Source of the DNA: Deferribacter desulfuricans SSM1
GTDB taxonomy: Bacteria > Chrysiogenota > Deferribacteres > Deferribacterales > Deferribacteraceae
DNA: 64,000 bases
Assembly (NCBI RefSeq): GCF_000010985.1
Contig: NC_013939.1
Span: 959,501 to 1,023,500 of the forward strand
Direction of reading: 5' to 3'
The translations under genes were made by a program, and so were the position numbers. Each line of letters starts with the position of its first letter. Within the stretch, counting starts at the first letter, position 1. The notes beneath the pieces were generated by a model. The model did not search any database. It saw only the letters and a list, made by a program, of their open reading frames with translations, and was not told where the DNA came from. Positions 8,545 through 18,763 of this stretch are shown piece by piece.

Positions 8545-8668
8545 AAATATCTCCTTTAAAAATTTTACAAGTGTTACTTAACACAATTAATAGATAAAAT
8601 AAATAGAAAAATGAAAAAATCTATAGTTTTTGTTGATTAAATATTATTTAATGTGTAAAAGAGTATCT

Positions 8669-10000
8669 ATGCACTCGTTTGTGGAAAAGTACCGTTTAAT
8701 ATTTGGTAGTAATATTGATAACTTTTTACAATCTTTGAAATTACCAAAAGAAAAATTTTTTAGATTAAATTTAGCAAGAAATTTTAACTATTTGAGTGAA
8801 TTTGAATATTTAAATATACCTTTTAGTAGATGTGATTTATTTGATAACGTATATAAACTAAAAGAATCAGATAAGAATATTAGACTTTCTGACACTATAT
8901 CCTTTTTTACTGGTGGTATTTATATACAAAATCCGTCTTCACTGTTACCTGTAAAGTTCCTTATAGAAAATATAGATGTTGATGAGCCTGTGATATTGGA
9001 TATGGCATCGGCTCCAGGTGGTAAAACAACAGCTTTAAGTGAGTTTTTAGATAGAAGAGGATTGATTGTTGCTAATGAGCCATCAAAGAGTAGATTAAAG
9101 GATCTCAATTTTAATATAGAGAAAAATTTTGCCTATAATGTTGCAACAGTATCATATGATGGAAGAGTTTTACATAAATATTTAAGTGAAGTTTTTGATG
9201 CTGTATTGCTTGATGCACCTTGCAGCAACGAAAACAAAATATTTCATGATAATGCTGTATTGAATAATTGGAGTGAAACTTTAGTTGAGAGATTGGCAAA
9301 GCTTCAAAGAGAGTTGATTGAGTCAGCTTGTTTTACATTGAGGAAGGGTGGGATATTGATATATTCAACATGCACTTTTTCTATAGAAGAAAATGAGCAG
9401 ATTGTTGAATATCTATTATCTGAATATGATGTGGAATTAATCGATTTAAATAAAGGTGATTTTGATTATGGGTTATCAGGCAATAGTAATATAGATAAAA
9501 AAGTTGTTAGAATTTTACCACATTCTGGCAGATACCCTGGTTTTGATGGTTTTTTTGTGGCAGGTTTTCGTAAAAAGGGTGGGGGGATTTCAAATCGAAA
9601 TGTTAAAATATTGAATAGCGGATATGGATTGCGAACACCTGCAGAAGATTCTATAATTTATGAGATTAAAAATGATTTATATTTATCACCTAAATATCAA
9701 ATTTCTGGTTTGAAATACGAAAAATTTGGAACAAAGTTAGGGAAAAAAATTAAAAATATGGTGGAATATTCTTCTCAAGCATGCTGGGAGTTTGGGGATA
9801 AATTAATTAAAAAAAAGCTTGTGATAGATGATTATGAAAAAGCTAAAAAATTTGTAAAAGGTGAAAATTTGAAATTAAAAGATTATGATAATAAAGAGGG
9901 GGTATTATTTTTTAAAGATATACCATTGGGGTACTTTAAAATTGTTGATGGTAGAATTAAAAATAAAATAGATAGATATTTTCTTAGAGGTTTAAAATGA
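8669..10000 (+). CDS. RsmB/RsmF-family rRNA cytosine-C5 methyltransferase
   Basis: A SAM-dependent RNA m5C methyltransferase of the NOL1/NOP2/Sun family. The start at 8669 is chosen because AAGAG lies five bases upstream; the frame is open back to 8630 without a ribosome site. It has motif I DMASAPGGKTTAL, the first catalytic region DAPCSNENKIF and the nucleophile region STCTFSIEENEQ. The N-terminus is not a NusB domain, and an extra C-terminal 150 residues resemble the PUA-like tail of RsmF, so 16S rRNA modification of the RsmF type is more likely than RsmB. The target cytosine cannot be assigned. It overlaps the next gene by 4 bases. Confidence 0.88.
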   Translation: MHSFVEKYRLIFGSNIDNFLQSLKLPKEKFFRLNLARNFNYLSEFEYLNIPFSRCDLFDNVYKLKESDKNIRLSDTISFFTGGIYIQNPSSLLPVKFLIENIDVDEPVILDMASAPGGKTTALSEFLDRRGLIVANEPSKSRLKDLNFNIEKNFAYNVATVSYDGRVLHKYLSEVFDAVLLDAPCSNENKIFHDNAVLNNWSETLVERLAKLQRELIESACFTLRKGGILIYSTCTFSIEENEQIVEYLLSEYDVELIDLNKGDFDYGLSGNSNIDKKVVRILPHSGRYPGFDGFFVAGFRKKGGGISNRNVKILNSGYGLRTPAEDSIIYEIKNDLYLSPKYQISGLKYEKFGTKLGKKIKNMVEYSSQACWEFGDKLIKKKLVIDDYEKAKKFVKGENLKLKDYDNKEGVLFFKDIPLGYFKIVDGRIKNKIDRYFLRGLK

Positions 10001-11280
10001 GAAAGGTGCTTGTTGTTGAAGATAGCAAATTTTTTGCTGGTGTATTAAAAAATAACCTCAGTATTTTAAAGTATGAGGTAGACATTGCTCAATCATTAAA
10101 GGAGGCAAAAGATTTAATCGAAAGTAAAACCTATGATTTGATTTCTTTAGATTTGAATTTACCTGATGGAGATGGCTTAGAATTTTGTAAAAAGTTAAAA
10201 AGTGACCCTAAATATTGTAAAACACAGATTATAATAATTTCTAATACAGAAGATGAAGATGTAAAAAAAGAAATGACTCATTATGGTATACTGGGTTTTT
10301 TTAGTAAAAAAGATTCAAAAGAGAAACTTACAGATTTTATAGTTAATCTTGATAGATTGCTGAAAACATTGGATTATAGTGGTGATAATGTTTTGTTGAT
10401 AGAAGATAGTAAAATTCAACATCTTTACATAAAAGGTTTATTGGAATATGCAGGGTTAACTGTGTATAGTGCATATTCGTTAGATGAAGCTTATAAGCTA
10501 ACCGAAAACGAAATGCCAAAACTTGATTTGATTATATTGGACTATTATTTTGATGATGGAAATGCTGAAGAATTTGTGCAAAAAATTAAATCTAATAGCT
10601 TTTATTCTCATACACCGATTATGATGCTAACAGTCAGTGATGAAGCAGATATAAAATACAGTTTATTTCTTTTGGGGGTTTCAGATTACCTAAAAAAACC
10701 TTTTGATGTTGGGGAGTTTTATTTAAGGATAAGATCGCACTTAAGGATTAAATACTTAATCGATATGTTAGAAACAAAAAATAAAATGCTTACGGTTTTA
10801 GCAACAATTGATGATTTGACACAGCTTTACAATAGAAGGTTTTTTTGGGAGTTGGCAAGAAAGGAAGAAAATAGATATATAAGGTACAAAAGAGATTATT
10901 CTATAATTATATTAGATATTGATGATTTTAAAATGATAAATGATACATATGGTCATGATATAGGTGATACTGTTTTGAAAGAGATTTCGAAATCTGTTAG
11001 GTCAAATATTAGAAAATCTGATATTTTAGCAAGATTTGGAGGAGAAGAGTTTATAATTTTGTTACCTGAAACAGAGAAAAATGGTGCAAAAGCAGTTGCA
11101 GAAAAAATTAGGCAAAGTATCAATGATAAACAGTTTACTCATTTTAAGTTACATATAACGGTAAGTCTTGGCGTTTCATCAAGAACTGAGGCAAATGATT
11201 TGGAAGAAACCATAAAAATTGCGGACAACAGGCTTTATAAAGCAAAAAATAGTGGTAAAAACAAGGTGGTAGAACAATGA
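9997..11280 (+). CDS. PleD-like diguanylate cyclase with two receiver domains
   Basis: A 427-residue response regulator: REC1 (about residues 1-120, phospho-acceptor Asp52), REC2 (about 130-255, Asp182 in LDYYFDDG) and a GGDEF domain (about 265-427). The active site is GGEEF at 348-352, and the RKSD at 339-342 is the RxxD inhibitory site at the right spacing, so product feedback is expected. It makes cyclic di-GMP. REC2 keeps its Asp, unlike the degenerate adaptor of Caulobacter PleD. It overlaps the methyltransferase gene upstream and the peptidoglycan gene downstream by 4 bases each. No cognate kinase is next to it. Confidence 0.94.
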   Translation: MRKVLVVEDSKFFAGVLKNNLSILKYEVDIAQSLKEAKDLIESKTYDLISLDLNLPDGDGLEFCKKLKSDPKYCKTQIIIISNTEDEDVKKEMTHYGILGFFSKKDSKEKLTDFIVNLDRLLKTLDYSGDNVLLIEDSKIQHLYIKGLLEYAGLTVYSAYSLDEAYKLTENEMPKLDLIILDYYFDDGNAEEFVQKIKSNSFYSHTPIMMLTVSDEADIKYSLFLLGVSDYLKKPFDVGEFYLRIRSHLRIKYLIDMLETKNKMLTVLATIDDLTQLYNRRFFWELARKEENRYIRYKRDYSIIILDIDDFKMINDTYGHDIGDTVLKEISKSVRSNIRKSDILARFGGEEFIILLPETEKNGAKAVAEKIRQSINDKQFTHFKLHITVSLGVSSRTEANDLEETIKIADNRLYKAKNSGKNKVVEQ

Positions 11281-12518
11281 GAAAGGTTATTTTTTTATTA
11301 ATAATTTTAGTTTTCTATGCGGGATTGAGTTTTTCTGCCATAATTGAGAATATTTTTTCTAAAGGTATTTCAGATGACACTGTTTTTGTGGTGGATAAAT
11401 CTCAAAAAAAACTTTTTGTGGTGCAGGTTAAAAATGATATGCCGGAAATAATTTGGCAGTATAACAATATCTTACTTGGTGAAATGGAGGGTGATAAGCA
11501 AGTCGAAGGTGATAAAAAAACACCAGAAGGTATATATCGTGTAGTTAGTTTTATTCCTAAAAATCAGCTTTCCGAAATTTATGGTGAAGGTGCTTATCCT
11601 CTCAATTATCCCAATCCAGTGGATAAAATTTTTGGCAAAACAGGTTATGGTATTTGGATACACGGACTAAAAGAAGATAGTGGGAAAAAATACACACAGG
11701 GGTGTGTGGCTCTGCATAATGGCGATTTAGTGAGTTTATCAAAATATAATCCCATTGGGAAAAACGTTGTTATTTCAAAACATATCAATTTATTGAGTGA
11801 GACTGATTATATTGCTAAAAAAAGTGAGCTGTTAAGCTATTTAGATGATTATATAGTTTCATGGGAAAACAATAATTTTGAGAAGTTTGCAAGTTTTTAT
11901 CATTTAAAATTTAGAAATAATTCAGGCAAAAATCTTAAATCTTATTTAAGTTTAAAAAAGAGATTGATGGATTTATACCCTTATAGAAAAATCTTTTATG
12001 ATAAACTTAAAATTTTAAAAGAGGATGATAGATATCTTTACTATAGATTTAGACAGCTTTACTGTTCTACAAACCTTATTAGTGAAGGTGTCAAAGAGTT
12101 GTATCTTTTTAATGAATCAGGTAGTTATCAAATAATTTATGAAAACTATAAGGACCAAAGCGACTATAATATGTTTAAAAACTATGTAATTGATTTTATT
12201 GAAAAATGGAAAACTGCATGGATTTCAAAAAATATCGATGAATATATTAATTTTTATTCAGATAATTTCTATTCGAAGGGGATGAACAAAGAAGGGTGGA
12301 AAGAATATAAGTCAAAGCTTTTTAATAAAATTGGCAAAATCGACATAAAAATCGAGAAGGTAGAAGTAAGTTTTACAAATTCTAATAATATAACGGTTAG
12401 GTTTATACAAAAATATAAAGCAGATGATTATAGTGATGTTGGTATAAAAACTTTAAGAATTGTTGGTTGCCCTGGAGATTTTAAAATAAAAGAAGAATTG
12501 TGGAGAAAGCTTAAATGA
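11277..12518 (+). CDS. Csd6/Pgp2-like peptidoglycan L,D-carboxypeptidase (YkuD fold) with NTF2-like tail
   Basis: A 413-residue exported protein with signal peptide at 1-21 and a YkuD catalytic domain (about 33-170). His129 (in IWIHGLKED) and the nucleophile Cys143 (in YTQGCVALHN) are in place. Two NTF2/SnoaL-like stretches follow, about 185-290 and 300-413. YkuD plus NTF2-like tail is the architecture of Helicobacter Csd6 and Campylobacter Pgp2, which trim tetrapeptide stems to tripeptides and set helical shape, rather than of ordinary L,D-transpeptidases. The next gene encodes the enzyme for the following trimming step and overlaps by 4 bases. Plain transpeptidase activity cannot be excluded. 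Confidence 0.85.
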   Translation: MRKVIFLLIILVFYAGLSFSAIIENIFSKGISDDTVFVVDKSQKKLFVVQVKNDMPEIIWQYNNILLGEMEGDKQVEGDKKTPEGIYRVVSFIPKNQLSEIYGEGAYPLNYPNPVDKIFGKTGYGIWIHGLKEDSGKKYTQGCVALHNGDLVSLSKYNPIGKNVVISKHINLLSETDYIAKKSELLSYLDDYIVSWENNNFEKFASFYHLKFRNNSGKNLKSYLSLKKRLMDLYPYRKIFYDKLKILKEDDRYLYYRFRQLYCSTNLISEGVKELYLFNESGSYQIIYENYKDQSDYNMFKNYVIDFIEKWKTAWISKNIDEYINFYSDNFYSKGMNKEGWKEYKSKLFNKIGKIDIKIEKVEVSFTNSNNITVRFIQKYKADDYSDVGIKTLRIVGCPGDFKIKEELWRKLK

Positions 12519-13954
12519 GAGTTGTTTCTTTATTTTTATTAATTTTAATTAGCGCATTAAACATTTTGGCTGGAGAAATTAAACGTCCTTCAACTGTTCA
12601 TAATGTATATTTTAAAGGCTCGGATTATGAATTACATGTTTATAAAATATATGGTAGAAAAGATGGCAACACCATGTTGATTGTTGGTGGTATTCAGGGG
12701 GATGAGCCAGGTGGGTTTTTATCAGCGGATCTATACTCTGACCTAAAGCTTGAAAAAGGTAATTTAATTGTTGTTCCAAGGGCTAATTTTAAATCAATTA
12801 TACTTTTTAATCGTGGTATCGATGGAGATATGAATAGAATATTTCATAAAGATAAAATTGAAACTGATATGGATAAGGTAGTTGCAATAATTAAAAAACT
12901 GATGTCAGAATCAGATGTTTTTCTTCATCTACACGATGGATGGGGGTTTCATTATCCAAAGTATGTTGATAATATGAGAAACCCTAAAAGGTTTGGCCAG
13001 TCTATAATTACCGATGCAGATGTTTATAAATGTAGCAGTGGAAAGGTATTAAATCTTAAAGATATGGCTTTGAAAGTATTAGATGAGGTAAATAATAAAA
13101 TTGGTGATGAAAAATATTTTATGCACTATTTCAATACTAATACTGATGACCCTAAGACCCCTTTTAAAGATATGAGAAAAACTGCTACTTATTTTGCTTT
13201 AAAAAAATACTGTATCCCTGCTTTTGGTATTGAAGCTTCAAAAAATTTGCCAACTGTTGAAATGAAGGTGCTGCATCACAACTATGCGGTGAATGCTTTT
13301 ATGAAGTTATTTGATATCATACCTGAGCAACCGCAGATTTTTTTGCCGAAACCTGAGTTTAAATATGTTGTATTACAGATAAATGGTGTGCCTAAGATTG
13401 TTGAAAATAATAAAAGGTTGTTAATACCAAAAAACTCTAAGGTAGAAATAATACATATTGAGTCAAATTACAAAAGAGGGCTGTCTTGTGACTTCCTTGG
13501 AATAAACGGCTTGAATGATATGGGGATACCGATAACAGTTAGAAAAGACACTAAGGTAGTTTTTAGAAAGGATAATAAAATTATAGGGGAGATTTTTCTG
13601 AAAGTCATTAATAAGGAAAAATATAGAAATGTTGTTTTTTTATTAGAAATTAATGGAAAGAAAAAAGCATTTTTAGATGGTGAAGTTGTATCAGTGCGTG
13701 TTGGTGATTCAGTAAAAATCATTAAATCTTTTTATGAAAGTAACGATGGGTCAGATATCGAGGTGAATTTCAAAGGGTATGTACCACCTGAGGTACAAAG
13801 AAACACAGGTGATGATAGGGGGTATCTAATACGAATAGATCATAGTTTTATGAAAAAGTATTCACTGTATAAGGATAAAGAAGTTTATCCAGTTGTAGCT
13901 ACAGATGAAAGTGGTGATAAAATTGGAACAATTTATATTGAAATTGTTAAATAA
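12515..13954 (+). CDS. Csd4/Pgp1-like peptidoglycan D,L-carboxypeptidase (M14/M99)
   Basis: A 479-residue exported zinc carboxypeptidase with signal peptide at about 1-20. The first zinc motif is GGIQGDEPGG with Gln61 and Glu64 in place of the usual His-x-x-Glu; the third ligand is His140 in LHDGWGFH; the catalytic Glu240 is in FGIEASKNLP. A Gln zinc ligand is the reported peculiarity of Helicobacter Csd4. The C-terminal half (about 285-479) is beta-rich, like the M99 accessory domains. The family cuts tripeptide stems to dipeptides and is needed for helical or curved cell shape. It is co-translated with the Csd6-like gene, suggesting a two-step stem-trimming unit. Confidence 0.87.
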   Translation: MRVVSLFLLILISALNILAGEIKRPSTVHNVYFKGSDYELHVYKIYGRKDGNTMLIVGGIQGDEPGGFLSADLYSDLKLEKGNLIVVPRANFKSIILFNRGIDGDMNRIFHKDKIETDMDKVVAIIKKLMSESDVFLHLHDGWGFHYPKYVDNMRNPKRFGQSIITDADVYKCSSGKVLNLKDMALKVLDEVNNKIGDEKYFMHYFNTNTDDPKTPFKDMRKTATYFALKKYCIPAFGIEASKNLPTVEMKVLHHNYAVNAFMKLFDIIPEQPQIFLPKPEFKYVVLQINGVPKIVENNKRLLIPKNSKVEIIHIESNYKRGLSCDFLGINGLNDMGIPITVRKDTKVVFRKDNKIIGEIFLKVINKEKYRNVVFLLEINGKKKAFLDGEVVSVRVGDSVKIIKSFYESNDGSDIEVNFKGYVPPEVQRNTGDDRGYLIRIDHSFMKKYSLYKDKEVYPVVATDESGDKIGTIYIEIVK

Positions 13955-14072: not shown

Positions 14073-15131
14073 ATGAGAAGGCTTTTCTTATCAATTTTTA
14101 TCTTGATGTTTTTGTCTGTTGGTGTTTATGCAAAAGATTTAAAGGTTGGGTTTATCTATGTGGGTCCTGTTGGTGATGGTGGTTGGAGTTATGCTCATGA
14201 TTTAGGTAGGAAAGAGCTTGAAAAATTGCCTTATGTTAAGAAAACAACTTATGTGGAATCTGTACCTGAGGGAGCAGATGCTTTAAGAGTAATTATGAAA
14301 CTTGCTCAAACTGGTCATAATCTCATTTTTACCACAAGTTTCGGTTTTATGGATCCCACATTGGAAGTGGCCAAAAGGTTTCCAAATGTGGTATTTATGC
14401 ATTGCTCAGGTTATAAGACTGCAAAGAATGTGGGTACATATTTTGGTAGAATGTATCAGGCAAGATATTTATCAGGTATGATAGCTGGTTCAATGACTAA
14501 ATCCAATATTATTGGTTATGTTGCTGCTCATCCAATTCCAGAAGTTATAAGAGGTATAAATGCGTTTACTTTAGGGGTTAGAAAAGTTAATCCAAAAGCT
14601 ACTGTAAAAGTAGTATGGACTCAAACTTGGCTCGATCCAGGTACTGAAAGAAATGCTGCTGAGAGCTTGTTGGATGTGGGAGCTGATGTTTTAACTATGC
14701 ATCAGGATACACCAGCTACTTTGCAGGCTGCTGAAGCTCGTGGTAAATATGTGATCGGTTACAATTCTGATATGAGAAAATATGCTCCAAACGGTTTTTT
14801 AACAGCACCAGTTTGGAACTGGGGAGCGATTTATAAATATGTTGCTAAACAGGTTCATGATGGAACTTGGAAAAGTGAGCAACTTTGGTGGGGGATGGAC
14901 AAGGGTGCTGTAAAGCTTGCTCCTATTAGTAATAAAGTTCCTGCTGATATTAGAAAACTTGTTGAAGACACAAAACAGAAAATCATTAATGGAGAATTTA
15001 AAGTTTTTGAAGGGGAAATAAAGGATCAAAACGGTAAAGTGGTTCTTAAAAAGGGTGATATATTTAGTGATAAGGAATTGTTGGGGATGAATTTCTTTGT
15101 TGAAGGTGTTAGCGGAGTTATCCCTAAATAA
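14073..15131 (+). CDS. BMP-family (Med/BmpA) nucleoside-type binding protein
   Basis: A 352-residue periplasmic binding protein of the basic membrane protein family with signal peptide MRRLFLSIFILMFLSVGVYA. It has the characteristic KVGFIYVGPVGDGGWSYAHD start, SFGFMDPTLEVAKRFPNVVFMH and RMYQARYLSGMIAGSM. Well-studied members bind purine nucleosides. It lacks a lipobox cysteine, as expected for a soluble periplasmic protein of a diderm. A GGAGGAG site precedes the ATG. It heads the importer operon and has a terminator directly after it, so it is probably made in excess over the membrane parts. Confidence 0.9.
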   Translation: MRRLFLSIFILMFLSVGVYAKDLKVGFIYVGPVGDGGWSYAHDLGRKELEKLPYVKKTTYVESVPEGADALRVIMKLAQTGHNLIFTTSFGFMDPTLEVAKRFPNVVFMHCSGYKTAKNVGTYFGRMYQARYLSGMIAGSMTKSNIIGYVAAHPIPEVIRGINAFTLGVRKVNPKATVKVVWTQTWLDPGTERNAAESLLDVGADVLTMHQDTPATLQAAEARGKYVIGYNSDMRKYAPNGFLTAPVWNWGAIYKYVAKQVHDGTWKSEQLWWGMDKGAVKLAPISNKVPADIRKLVEDTKQKIINGEFKVFEGEIKDQNGKVVLKKGDIFSDKELLGMNFFVEGVSGVIPK

Positions 15132-15155
15132 TTTTTCCAATTAAAATAATCTTTA

Positions 15156-15187
15156 AAAAGGCGGGGTAACCCGCCTTTTGTTTTTTT
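15156..15187 (+). terminator. terminator/attenuator between binding protein and ABC genes
   Basis: AAAAGGCGGG (15156-15165) pairs perfectly with CCCGCCTTTT (15170-15179) around a GTAA tetraloop, followed by G and seven T residues. This is a strong intrinsic terminator. Partial readthrough would explain higher expression of the binding protein than of the ATPase and permeases. Confidence 0.88.
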
Positions 15188-15200
15188 AACTTTACAAATT

Positions 15201-15221
15201 ATCTTTTATAAAATAAAAGAT
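15201..15221. promoter_or_regulatory. perfect 9-bp-arm palindrome upstream of the ABC ATPase gene
   Basis: ATCTTTTAT (15201-15209) and ATAAAAGAT (15213-15221) form an exact inverted repeat around AAA. It lies between the terminator and the ATPase start. It could be an operator for a separate promoter or merely AT-rich symmetry; no clear hexamer pair is seen with it. Confidence 0.3.
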
Positions 15222-15277
15222 GTTGTCCCAAAAAATACATTTTTTGAGAAATTTATTGTAATTAAAGTGAGAGAGTG

Positions 15278-16792
15278 ATGGCTGAGGTTTTATTAAGTCT
15301 AAAGAATATTACAAAATCTTTTGGGAATGTGATTGCCAATAACAATGTTACATTTGATATTGAAAAAGGGGAGATACATACACTCCTTGGAGAAAATGGT
15401 GCAGGCAAAAGTACTTTAATGAACATTATAACAGGCCTTTATAAACCTGATTCAGGAGAGATTCTTTGGAAAGGTAAGCAGGTTGAAATAAATTCTCCTA
15501 TGGACGCATTAAAGTTAGGTATAGGGATGGTACATCAGCATTTTATGCTCGTAAGAAATCATACCGTTTATGAAAATCTATTTTTATCAGTGGATAAGCC
15601 ACCATTTTTATTAAAAAAACAAGATATTTTGGATAAGATAAACGGTATAATAGAAAAATTTGACTTAAACATTTCATTAAATGACCCCGTTTGGAAATTA
15701 GAGATTGGTAAACAGCAATGGATAGAAATTATAAAGTTGTTACTTAGAGATTGTGAATTGTTTATTTTGGATGAGCCAACAGCAGTATTGACACCTCAAG
15801 AGAGTCAGAAATTATTTGAGTTTTTAAAAGGGTTAAGAGACAGTGGTAAATCAATTATTTTTATTTCACATAAAATGAAAGAGGTTATGGATATCTCTGA
15901 CAAGGTTACTGTGTTAAAAAAAGGGGAAGTGGTAAAAACCTTAAAACGTGGCGATTTTGATGAAAAAATTCTTGCTAATTTAATGATTGACAGAGATGAA
16001 GAGATTACGTTTGAAAGGAAGCTTTTAAAAGAGAAAAAAGTTATTTTAAGTTTAAAAGATCTTTATGTTAGGAATGAAAAAGGGTTAAGCGATTTAGATG
16101 GATTGAGTTTGGATATTTATAAAGGGGAAGTTTTTGGTATTGCAGGTGTTGCCGGTAATGGACAGAAAGCGTTGGCTGAAGTTTTGACAGGTCTTAAAAA
16201 GGTGGAAAGAGGTCAAATCTTGATTAATGGTCAAGATATGACATATTCTGGAGCTAGAAGTAAGTATATCGCTGGTATTGCTCATATCCCTGAAGATAGA
16301 AAAACCATGGGAATTGCTCCTGATATGAGTGTTGAAGAGAATTTAGTTCTTAAAAATTATAAAGATAAACAGTTTAGAAAAGGTATTTTTTTGAATTTTA
16401 AGAAAATAAGGGAAAATGCTATAAAGAAGGTGGAAGATTTTGATATTAGACTTGCTTCACTTGATCAGTCGGTTAGATTTCTATCTGGTGGAAATATTCA
16501 AAAAGTAATAATTGCAAGGGAGTTATCACAACATCCTCAAATACTGGTAGCTTTGTATCCTACAAGAGGGCTTGATGTTGGATCTGCTGAATATGTTCAT
16601 AAAGTTATTTTAGAAGAACGAGATAAAGGGGTTACTACAATTTTAATATCTGAGGATTTGGATGAATTACTTAGATTGTCTGATAGAATCGGTGTTATTT
16701 TTAGAGGTAAAATAATTGGGATTGTAGAACCAAGTAAAACAACAATTACAGAAATTGGTTTGTTAATGGCAGGGCATAAAAATGAAAATTAG
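15278..16792 (+). CDS. double-ATPase subunit of the BMP-family ABC importer
   Basis: A 504-residue fused ABC ATPase. The first domain has Walker A GENGAGKST (38-46), Q-loop MVHQHFML and Walker B LFILDEPTAVLTP. The second has a degenerate Walker A GVAGNGQKALAEV, a good LSGGNIQKV signature and LVALYPTRGLDVG. Two domains in one chain, with a modified second domain, is the sugar/nucleoside importer (MglA/NupO) arrangement. The ATG at 15278 is preferred over the GTG one codon earlier. The 3' end overlaps the permease gene by 11 bases. It energises purine nucleoside-type uptake together with the two permeases. Confidence 0.93.
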   Translation: MAEVLLSLKNITKSFGNVIANNNVTFDIEKGEIHTLLGENGAGKSTLMNIITGLYKPDSGEILWKGKQVEINSPMDALKLGIGMVHQHFMLVRNHTVYENLFLSVDKPPFLLKKQDILDKINGIIEKFDLNISLNDPVWKLEIGKQQWIEIIKLLLRDCELFILDEPTAVLTPQESQKLFEFLKGLRDSGKSIIFISHKMKEVMDISDKVTVLKKGEVVKTLKRGDFDEKILANLMIDRDEEITFERKLLKEKKVILSLKDLYVRNEKGLSDLDGLSLDIYKGEVFGIAGVAGNGQKALAEVLTGLKKVERGQILINGQDMTYSGARSKYIAGIAHIPEDRKTMGIAPDMSVEENLVLKNYKDKQFRKGIFLNFKKIRENAIKKVEDFDIRLASLDQSVRFLSGGNIQKVIIARELSQHPQILVALYPTRGLDVGSAEYVHKVILEERDKGVTTILISEDLDELLRLSDRIGVIFRGKIIGIVEPSKTTITEIGLLMAGHKNEN

Positions 16793-17840
16793 AGTAGTAA
16801 AAAGGGATAAAGCCAGTAAGTTATTACAAATTGTAACTCCTTTTATAGCTATATTACTATCTTTTGCCTTTGTAGGAATATTTCTCATTTTAAATGGTTT
16901 AAATCCTATATTGGTATTTAAAGATATGTTTGTGGAGTCTTTGGGCTCTTTTTACGGTTTTAGTGAAACACTTGTAAAAACAACCCCATTAATATTATGT
17001 GGTTTAGGTGTTGCTCTGGCTTTTAGGATGGAGCTGTGGAACATCGGAGCTGAGGGGCAGCTATATATGGGTGCTTTTGGTGCATCCTTAATTGCTCTGT
17101 TTTTCAACATCAACAATCATTTCTTGATGATATTATTGATGTTTTTATCTGCTGTTGTTTTTAGTGGATTGTGGGGATTGATAGCTGGATTTTTAAAGGC
17201 TAAGTGGAGTGTAAATGAAATAATTGTTACTTTGTTAATGAATTATATTGCAATATTATGGGTAGACTACCTTGTTTATGGCCCTTGGAAAGATCCTGGT
17301 GGATTCAATTTCCCTTTAACAAAGCAGTTTTCAGATGTTGCAAGATTAAGTTATTATTTTAATACAAGATTACACACAGGTTTCTTTATAGCGATAGTTT
17401 TAGTTTTTCTTTTTTATATTTTGATAGAAAAAACAGTTTGGGGTTATGAGATTAGAGTAATAGGTAATAATCCAAATGCGGCTAAGTATGCTGGTATCAA
17501 CTATGAGAAAAATGTTATATTAGTAATGTTTATAAGTGGAGCTTTAGCAGGGATAGCTGGATTTTCTGAAGTTGCTGGAGTGACTTATAGATTACAACAT
17601 TCGATTTCTCCAGGGTATGGCTATACTGCCATAATTGTAGCTTGGCTTGCTAAAAGAAGTGCTCTTGGTGTTTTACTAGTATCTTTTGTAATGGGTGTTT
17701 TGTTTGTTGGTAACGATGCTTTACAAATAAGCTACCAGTTACCAATTGCTTTTGTAAACGCTTTTCAGGGGCTTATCCTGTTTTTTGTGATTTCGTCAGA
17801 ATTTTTTGTTAACTATAAGATAAAGTTTGGGGTAAAATAA
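16782..17840 (+). CDS. ABC importer permease 1 (NupP/YufP-like)
   Basis: A 352-residue multispanning permease of the BPD_transp_2 family. The diagnostic pair is FRMELWNIGAEGQLYMG near residues 81-97 and the coupling loop WGYEIRVIGNNPNAAKYAGI near 219-238. It pairs with the second permease two bases downstream to form the heterodimeric channel of a BMP-type importer. The start overlaps the ATPase gene. Its substrate is inferred from the binding protein family and the downstream phosphoribosyltransferase, not from the permease itself. Confidence 0.9.
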   Translation: MKIRVVKRDKASKLLQIVTPFIAILLSFAFVGIFLILNGLNPILVFKDMFVESLGSFYGFSETLVKTTPLILCGLGVALAFRMELWNIGAEGQLYMGAFGASLIALFFNINNHFLMILLMFLSAVVFSGLWGLIAGFLKAKWSVNEIIVTLLMNYIAILWVDYLVYGPWKDPGGFNFPLTKQFSDVARLSYYFNTRLHTGFFIAIVLVFLFYILIEKTVWGYEIRVIGNNPNAAKYAGINYEKNVILVMFISGALAGIAGFSEVAGVTYRLQHSISPGYGYTAIIVAWLAKRSALGVLLVSFVMGVLFVGNDALQISYQLPIAFVNAFQGLILFFVISSEFFVNYKIKFGVK

Positions 17841-17842
17841 AC

Positions 17843-18763
17843 ATGATGGTTGAAATATTGATTGATGCTACAATTAGAGCTGGTACATCAATTCTTTTTG
17901 CTACTTTAGGTGAAATAGTTACAGAAAGAAGTGGTATTATAAATCTTGGTGTGGAAGGCTTGATGCTTATTGGGGCTTTAAGCGGTTTTTATGTATCCCA
18001 TGTTACTGGAAATCTTTATCTTGGTGTAATTGCGTCTTTTATTTTTGCTTCATTGGCTGGTATGATTCATGCTTTTATTACCGTTTATCTTAGAGCGAAT
18101 CAGATTGTTAGTGGCCTTGCACTTACAATGTTTGGGATAGGGATCACTGCACTTTATGGGAAGAAAATGATTGGTATACCGCTTGATGGTTTTAAGAAAA
18201 TTTCTATTCCGTTGTTATCAAAAATACCTGTAGTTGGAGTTATTTTTAATCAGGATATACTTGTATATTTTAGTTATTTTTTAGTAGTTGCACTCTCTTT
18301 TGTTCTGTTTAAAACGAGGGTTGGATTAAAAATTAGAATGTGTGGCGAAAATCCTGCTGCTGCTGATACTGCTGGTATAAATGTTTTTAAAGTGAGATTT
18401 TTCTCAACAATTTTTGGATCAGGTTTGGCAGGAATAGGTGGTGCTTATCTTTCTTTAGCATACACTCCAATGTGGATTGAAAATATGTCTGCAGGTAGAG
18501 GCTGGATTGCAGTGGCATTGGTTATCTTTGCATCCTGGTATTGCTATAGAGCTATGTTTGGGGCTTATCTATTTGGTGGGATTAATGCTTTACAGCTTAG
18601 GCTCCAAGCAATAGGGACTAATGTTTCTGCTCATATTTTGCAGATGTTACCTTACCTTTTTACAATAATTGTTTTAGTAATTGCTACTATTAGATTGGAA
18701 AAAGGGGCAAAAGTAGAGCCTGAAGCTCTTGGTATCTCTTATGACAGAGAAGATAGGAGATAA
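17843..18763 (+). CDS. ABC importer permease 2 (NupQ/YufQ-like)
   Basis: A 306-residue permease with about eight membrane segments. It carries LGEIVTERSGIINLGVEGLM near residues 22-41 and the ATPase-contact loop RVGLKIRMCGENPAAADTAGI, the hallmarks of the YufQ-like half of nucleoside ABC importers. A single base separates its stop from the ATG of the Xpt-like gene, giving tight coupling of transport and salvage. Confidence 0.9.
   Translation: MMVEILIDATIRAGTSILFATLGEIVTERSGIINLGVEGLMLIGALSGFYVSHVTGNLYLGVIASFIFASLAGMIHAFITVYLRANQIVSGLALTMFGIGITALYGKKMIGIPLDGFKKISIPLLSKIPVVGVIFNQDILVYFSYFLVVALSFVLFKTRVGLKIRMCGENPAAADTAGINVFKVRFFSTIFGSGLAGIGGAYLSLAYTPMWIENMSAGRGWIAVALVIFASWYCYRAMFGAYLFGGINALQLRLQAIGTNVSAHILQMLPYLFTIIVLVIATIRLEKGAKVEPEALGISYDREDRR

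What the first reader, a model, noticed from the sequence alone, without database searches (positions are those of the whole stretch)
11277..13954. Csd6-Csd4-like cell-shape enzymes encoded as an overlapping pair
The first gene has a YkuD catalytic domain plus an NTF2-like tail, as in Helicobacter Csd6/Campylobacter Pgp2. The second is an M14/M99-type carboxypeptidase whose zinc motif has Gln61-x-x-Glu64, the unusual Gln ligand reported for Csd4. Together they would take stems from tetra- to tri- to dipeptide. Finding the two consecutive steps fused in one operon outside Campylobacterota suggests a portable curvature module, and Deferribacter-type cells are often bent.
Basis: partly seen in the sequence, partly recalled or inferred. 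Interest (0 to 1): 0.6.

Follow-up and report, generated by a model that had tools for sequence, protein, structure and literature searches.

The report
Cell-curving wall-trimming enzyme pair
Two overlapping genes in Deferribacter desulfuricans encode enzymes that very probably trim cell-wall peptides in sequence, like those that bend Helicobacter and Campylobacter; the pair recurs side by side in at least six phyla, and its first enzyme carries a second wall-binding domain that is more strictly conserved than the first.

Summary
ORF 11277-12518 is an L,D-carboxypeptidase of the Csd6/Pgp2/Bd1075 family. ORF 12515-13954 is an M99 peptidase (Csd4/Pgp1) with Gln61-x-x-Glu64...His140. They overlap by ATGA. 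The genome is Deferribacter desulfuricans SSM1.

The idea is not new: Frirdich 2014 found pgp2 through its association with pgp1 and reported the genes adjacent in Nautilia, Nitratiruptor, a Desulfococcus and Persephonella.

The first enzyme has two tandem NTF2 domains. The second (not the first) keeps the Pgp2 peptidoglycan-pocket residues in 63-64 of 64 homologues. AlphaFold predicts both domains (pLDDT 95.6).

In 51 Deferribacterota genomes the two families occur in the same 44, adjacent in 41. Flexistipes (non-motile, straight to acutely bent) lost both plus flagellin. The linked pair also occurs in Nitrospirota, Gammaproteobacteria, Neomarinimicrobiota, Desulfobacterota, Latescibacterota and Myxococcota. 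In Desulfobacterota an unnamed membrane-anchored protein gene usually sits between them. Chrysiogenetes M99 has His instead of Gln.

Verdict: a real, widespread variant of a known module. Catalysis is inferred from conserved sites; a curvature role in Deferribacter is likely but untested.

The parts
11277..12518 (+). L,D-carboxypeptidase of the Csd6/Pgp2/Bd1075 family with two tandem NTF2-like domains (413 aa, N-terminal signal-peptide-like segment)
   Evidence: Pfam YkuD + 2 stretches of Cds6_C; PDB 7o21/4xzz/6xj6 by sequence and fold; AF2 pLDDT 95.6
11379..11774 (+). YkuD catalytic domain (residues 35-166)
   Evidence: H129, G130, G142, C143, K74, D79 invariant in 64 homologues
11661..11663 (+). 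codon of catalytic His129 (Csd6 His155)
   Evidence: alignment to 4xzz; 64/64 His
11703..11705 (+). codon of nucleophile Cys143 (Csd6 Cys176)
   Evidence: alignment to 4xzz; 64/64 Cys
11799..12155 (+). first NTF2-like domain (about residues 175-293), in the position of the single NTF2 of Bd1075/Csd6/Pgp2
   Evidence: pocket residues only partly conserved
12168..12515 (+). second NTF2-like domain (about residues 298-413) with Pgp2-type pocket residues Y323, Y327, F331, K345, K391, E407
   Evidence: 63-64 of 64 homologues keep each pocket residue
12515..12518 (+). ATGA: start codon of the M99 gene overlapping the stop of the L,D-carboxypeptidase gene
   Evidence: sequence
12515..13954 (+). M99 D,L-carboxypeptidase, Csd4/Pgp1 family (479 aa, N-terminal signal-peptide-like segment; catalytic domain followed by all-beta regions)
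   Evidence: Pfam M99, PDB Csd4 over residues 51-460, AF2 pLDDT 93.6, fold hits Csd4 ranks 1-5
12695..12706 (+). codons Gln61-Gly62-Asp63-Glu64, metal ligands Gln and Glu (Csd4 Gln46, Glu49)
   Evidence: Csd4 ligands from PMC4220969
12932..12934 (+). codon of metal ligand His140 (Csd4 His128)
   Evidence: 110/110 His
9997..11280 (+). REC-REC-GGDEF diguanylate cyclase (GGEEF, RxxD) overlapping the L,D-carboxypeptidase gene by ATGA; lineage-specific member of the operon
   Evidence: present only in f1, f2 and G015
8630..10000 (+). RsmB/RsmF-like rRNA methyltransferase, conserved upstream neighbour of the pair in most Deferribacterota
   Evidence: sequence resemblance, named from knowledge of the family; conserved neighbour; kept in Flexistipes after loss of the pair

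Best explanation
The two genes are a translationally coupled peptidoglycan-trimming unit. Both proteins appear to be exported to the periplasm. The YkuD/NTF2 enzyme removes D-Ala from tetrapeptide stems (tetra to tri) and the M99 enzyme then removes meso-Dap (tri to di), producing stems that cannot serve as cross-link donors. Local excess of this trimming lets one face of the wall grow differently and bends the cell. The tandem NTF2 domains give the first enzyme two peptidoglycan-reading pockets; the second one is the conserved reader. Shown here: family membership, active-site and pocket conservation, fold, co-occurrence, linkage, and joint loss in Flexistipes. Inferred from the homologues: the two reactions and their order. 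Inferred and untested: curvature in Deferribacter, and the bivalent reading role of the second NTF2.
For: Family, sites and fold. Pocket residues required in Pgp2 for helical shape (PMC8038945) are kept in NTF2b in 63-64 of 64. M99 and Cds6_C occur in the same 44 of 51 Deferribacterota (Fisher 9e-9), in 39 of 40 M99 genomes of a 198-genome Desulfobacterota sample against 15 of 158 others and in 5 of 5 in Nitrospirota. Shape: Denitrovibrio vibrioid, Calditerrivibrio vibrio-shaped, Desulfurispirillum spiral, Chrysiogenes curved and probably Termitispirillum spiral (G029, matched by size and flagellin number) have both genes; Flexistipes, 'straight to acutely bent' and non-motile, has neither, a clean absence behind RsmF, and no flagellin.
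Against: No biochemistry or morphology for D. desulfuricans was available. Correlation within one phylum is phylogenetically confounded: only one well-supported loss (two sister genomes), and flagella were lost as well. Flexistipes cells can still be bent. Family f8 (two drafts, one 96% complete) has flagellin but neither gene nor RsmF, and its shape is unknown. Some Desulfobacterota have Cds6_C without M99. Adding Pgp1 and Pgp2 to E. coli was reported not sufficient to bend it. Fisher values ignore relatedness.
Confidence: 0.7

Rival explanations
1. The pair trims stems as described but serves general wall remodelling, such as limiting cross-linking, recycling, or fitting the flagellar motor through the wall, rather than curvature.
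For: Presence follows flagellin in the only clean loss: Flexistipes genomes G014 and G016 lack both the pair and flagellin, while bactofilin is kept.
Against: In C. jejuni and H. pylori deletion of either homologue straightens the cell; Bd1075 bends Bdellovibrio. f8 genomes keep flagellin without the pair.
Confidence: 0.17
2. ORF 1 is a genuine L,D-transpeptidase, or a DpaA-like amidase that frees wall-bound lipoprotein, not a carboxypeptidase.
For: YkuD domains in general are transpeptidases; NCBIfam gives a weak DpaA hit (1.8e-4, far below cut-off) and DpaA is the best further YkuD fold hit.
Against: The only full two-domain matches, by sequence and fold, are Bd1075, Csd6 and Pgp2, all L,D-carboxypeptidases; near-constant co-occurrence with a tripeptide carboxypeptidase, which needs tripeptide substrate.
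Confidence: 0.08
3. The operon is a c-di-GMP-controlled shape switch: the overlapping diguanylate cyclase regulates or reports on the two enzymes.
For: ATGA overlaps join the cyclase to the pair; same order in f1, f2 and G015; GGEEF and RxxD motifs in the sequence.
Against: Most Deferribacterota have the pair without the cyclase, so it is not needed. Operon membership alone shows no regulation.
Confidence: 0.05

Closest known systems
Bd1075 of Bdellovibrio bacteriovorus (7O21; PMC8938487)
   Same: YkuD L,D-carboxypeptidase plus NTF2; best sequence and fold match (1.4e-37; TM 0.89-0.90 by target length); curves a non-Campylobacterota cell
   Different: One NTF2 domain with a C-terminal extension that holds Trp303; no linked M99 described
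Csd6 of Helicobacter pylori (4XZZ) and Pgp2 of Campylobacter jejuni (6XJ6)
   Same: Catalytic His/Cys/Lys positions; NTF2 pocket residues match NTF2b of the window protein
   Different: Single NTF2; Csd6 has an N-terminal dimerisation domain; in C. jejuni pgp2 (0915) and pgp1 (1344) are far apart
Csd4 of H. pylori (4WCK) and Pgp1 of C. jejuni, peptidase M99
   Same: Gln-x-x-Glu...His metal motif, catalytic domain followed by all-beta regions, match along most of the length
   Different: About 26% identity in the structural alignment; relative domain placement in the model differs
Adjacent pgp2/pgp1 genes in Nautilia, Nitratiruptor, a Desulfococcus and Persephonella (PMC3961634)
   Same: Same two enzymes as neighbours within 300 bp, outside Campylobacter and Helicobacter
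   Different: Reported from STRING only; tandem NTF2, the middle gene and the breadth were not described there

Membership tests
Csd6/Pgp2 L,D-carboxypeptidase | YkuD domain with catalytic His and Cys | tested here: met
   H129 and C143, 64/64
Csd6/Pgp2 L,D-carboxypeptidase | C-terminal NTF2-like domain packed behind YkuD | tested here: met
   AF2 model and fold matches to 7o21, 4xzz, 6xj6; a second NTF2 is extra
Csd6/Pgp2 L,D-carboxypeptidase | NTF2 peptidoglycan-pocket residues (Pgp2 Y233, F242, K257, K307, E324) | tested here: met
   NTF2b has all five; NTF2a has F, F, K, K, E
Csd6/Pgp2 L,D-carboxypeptidase | carboxypeptidase and not transpeptidase activity | not testable with these tools
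   needs an assay
Csd6 of H. pylori | N-terminal dimerisation domain | tested here: not met
   YkuD begins about 14 residues after the signal-like segment; Bd1075 is described as monomeric, so this is not a requirement of the wider family
Csd4/Pgp1, peptidase M99 | M99 profile above curated cut-off | tested here: met
   130 bits against cut-off 27
Csd4/Pgp1, peptidase M99 | metal motif QxxE...H | tested here: met
   Q61, E64, H140
Csd4/Pgp1, peptidase M99 | CPase + beta-barrel + Ig-like architecture | tested here: inconclusive
   All-beta C-terminal half, full-length Foldseek alignment to Csd4 but rmsd about 11 A and TM about 0.6
Csd4/Pgp1, peptidase M99 | D,L-carboxypeptidase activity on muramyl-tripeptide | not testable with these tools
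   needs an assay

The most novel reading that the evidence does not exclude
Outside Campylobacterota the curvature module exists as a coherent, horizontally mobile two- or three-gene unit. Its L,D-carboxypeptidase is a bivalent peptidoglycan reader (two NTF2 pockets in one chain), replacing the Csd6 dimer, and in Desulfobacterota and some others a previously unnamed membrane-anchored protein, whose anchor resembles that of Csd1-like M23 peptidases, recruits the pair.
Probability: 0.35. Interest if true: 0.65.

Novelty: new variant of a known kind. Interest (0 to 1): 0.45.

Why it matters
How trimming of wall peptides bends cells is known mainly from Helicobacter, Campylobacter and one Bdellovibrio enzyme. 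A compact, linked and co-inherited version in non-pathogenic, mostly curved bacteria shows that the two steps form one evolutionary unit. It also gives test organisms in which the two steps can be removed together or apart, and identifies a second reader domain and a candidate membrane partner that the model organisms do not show.

Tried and rejected
(1) That the pair is a Deferribacter oddity: rejected, 41 of 51 genomes of the phylum-level group have it adjacent. (2) That the c-di-GMP enzyme is a core part: rejected, it is limited to three lineages. (3) That the Gln ligand is universal in the family: rejected, Chrysiogenetes have His. (4) Firm horizontal transfer out of Deferribacterota: not proven, AU tests do not reject monophyletic Deferribacterota (p 0.064, 0.094, 0.165). 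(5) Bactofilin loss as an explanation of Flexistipes shape: rejected, bactofilin is kept. (6) RNA elements and promoters at the locus: no Rfam match; promoter-like sites at chance level. (7) No direct paper on the shape of D. desulfuricans was held. (8) Campylobacterota could not be surveyed: no genome handle in that phylum was reached.
Full report
What is there. The window lies in a genome of 2,542,933 bases in two contigs. The chromosome of 2,234,389 and plasmid of 308,544 match Deferribacter desulfuricans SSM1 (PMC13186404). The same kind of overlap joins them to an upstream REC-REC-GGDEF gene, and that one to an RsmF-like methyltransferase gene.

Enzyme 1. The first ORF has a YkuD domain and two, not one, copies of the Cds6_C NTF2 domain. 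Its solved relatives are Bd1075, Csd6 and Pgp2. AlphaFold on an alignment of 64 own-locus homologues gives pLDDT 95.6 and two complete NTF2 folds, residues 175-293 and 298-411. Foldseek aligns about 280 residues with Bd1075, YkuD plus one NTF2 domain, at TM 0.89-0.90 by target length, and no solved structure matches the whole chain. Catalytic His129 and Cys143 are invariant.

The second NTF2 domain. In Pgp2, residues Y233, F242, K257, K307 and E324 of the NTF2 pocket are needed for full helical shape, and K307 for peptidoglycan pull-down (PMC8038945). I mapped them by hand through the phmmer alignment, with Y237 added. The equivalents in NTF2b (Y323, Y327, F331, K345, K391, E407) are kept in 63, 64, 63, 64, 64 and 64 of 64 homologues. 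In NTF2a (positions 204, 208, 212, 227, 273, 289) the commonest residue is kept in 30 to 59 of 64. NTF2b has 10 invariant columns of 115, NTF2a none of 116. So the added C-terminal copy is under stronger constraint than the one that sits where Csd6 has its only copy. Two pockets in one chain could replace the dimer that Csd6 forms through an N-terminal domain (PMC4599014), which this protein lacks. That last step is inference.

Enzyme 2. The second ORF is an M99 peptidase matching Csd4 over residues 51-460. Gln61, Glu64 and His140 align with Csd4 Gln46, Glu49 and His128, which bind the metal (PMC4220969). In 110 sequences the Glu and His never vary. Gln is replaced by His, the usual M14 ligand, only in the three f10 genomes. 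One of these is Desulfurispirillum indicum (2,928,377 bp, PMC3368425) and another fits Chrysiogenes arsenatis by size and contig number (PMC3828317). The predicted fold has Csd4 as its five best PDB matches, but with shifted domains.

Distribution in the phylum. Of 51 genomes, 44 have M99 and the same 44 have Cds6_C. By coordinates they are adjacent on one strand in 41. In the three Chrysiogenetes-type genomes they are unlinked, with a single NTF2 domain. RsmF is the usual upstream neighbour; the cyclase is inserted only in f1, f2 and G015.

Losses. G014 is Flexistipes sinusarabici (2,526,590 bp), non-motile and straight to acutely bent. It and its sister G016 keep RsmF, directly followed by unrelated genes, and lack flagellin, while bactofilin is present. 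Three other absences are in genomes where RsmF is missing too (G031, G034, G046) and may be assembly gaps. Family f8 (G049, G050) is an unexplained absence with flagellin present.

Other phyla. A scan of named genomes with the M99 alignment and reading of the loci shows YkuD-NTF2 genes upstream of M99 on the same strand in Nitrospirota, Gammaproteobacteria, Neomarinimicrobiota (NCBI Fidelibacterota), Desulfobacterota, Latescibacterota and Myxococcota; several of these are MAG labels taken from record titles. All 15 M99 genomes tested also have Cds6_C, including Gemmatimonadota, Glassbacteria and Latescibacterota ones. In a 198-genome Desulfobacterota sample, 39 of 40 M99 genomes have Cds6_C against 15 of 158 others, and at least 27 of 40 are linked. 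In Nitrospirota it is 5 of 5, two adjacent. In Gammaproteobacteria M99 is sporadic, 13 of 369. Fisher values treat genomes as independent and overstate significance. The one search list is ranked by likeness to the window protein, so its linkage rate is not a census.

History. Trees of M99, of the L,D-carboxypeptidase and of both together put the Nitrospirota and Gammaproteobacteria pairs in one clade with Deferribacterota, the latter beside the gut families f6/f7. Joint transfer is the simplest reading, but AU tests do not reject Deferribacterota as one clade.

A third gene. Between the two genes in Desulfobacterota and a few others lies a gene for a protein of about 200-400 aa with one transmembrane helix, a variable stalk and a conserved C-terminal domain. 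In all 36 loci with a fair-sized middle ORF it is one family, without a Pfam or NCBIfam assignment shared by its members. Its N-terminal anchor resembles that of M23 peptidases in Deferribacterota, one of them next to a bactofilin gene (the M23 domain was recognised by eye). A role as membrane anchor or recruiter is a guess.

What was known. Frirdich et al. 2014 found pgp2 through STRING co-occurrence with pgp1 and list adjacent pairs in four organisms, two of them outside Campylobacterota (PMC3961634). Csd4 homologues were reported mainly in curved or helical organisms (PMC3310789, PMC3310797). Bd1075 bends Bdellovibrio (PMC8938487). The module is therefore a known kind; tandem NTF2, the middle gene, the His variant and the breadth are the additions. 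I found no paper that joins Deferribacter with Csd4, within an open-licence library only.

Verdict. The identity of both enzymes is firm, the reactions probable, the curvature role likely and untested. The evidence for shape is comparative and rests on one clean loss.

Noticed in passing
window 9997-11280; L048, L050, L051, L062: A REC-REC-GGDEF diguanylate cyclase with GGEEF and RxxD motifs is inserted, with overlapping ends in the window, between RsmF and the pair in Deferribacter, Calditerrivibrio-type genomes and one f4 genome only.
   Followed up: partly
L089:3400-4152, L110:1426-2340, L130:5029-5928 and 33 further loci: Unnamed membrane-anchored protein family between the two enzymes in Desulfobacterota and some Myxococcota and Latescibacterota MAGs; its anchor resembles that of Csd1-like M23 peptidases but there is no M23 domain.
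   Followed up: partly
L041, L043, L045 (M99); L042, L044, L046 (L,D-carboxypeptidase): M99 proteins of Chrysiogenetes have His in place of the Csd4 Gln metal ligand, and their unlinked L,D-carboxypeptidase has a long, repeat-like N-terminal extension and a single NTF2.
   Followed up: partly
G049, G050 (family f8): Two Deferribacterota drafts with flagellin and bactofilin but no M99, Cds6_C or RsmF; cell shape unknown, a natural test of the curvature reading.
   Followed up: no
G199, G173, G253, G229, G141, G202 and several Gammaproteobacteria (G743, G646 and others): A second set of M99 proteins with much stronger Pfam scores (1e-70 to 1e-90), perhaps Campylobacter-like; in the six Desulfobacterota genomes the Cds6_C genes are unlinked.
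   Followed up: no
window 14073-18763: Directly downstream lies a Bmp/PnrA-type ABC transporter gene set (substrate-binding protein, ATPase, two permeases), conserved next to the pair only in f1 and f2 among the loci read.
   Followed up: no
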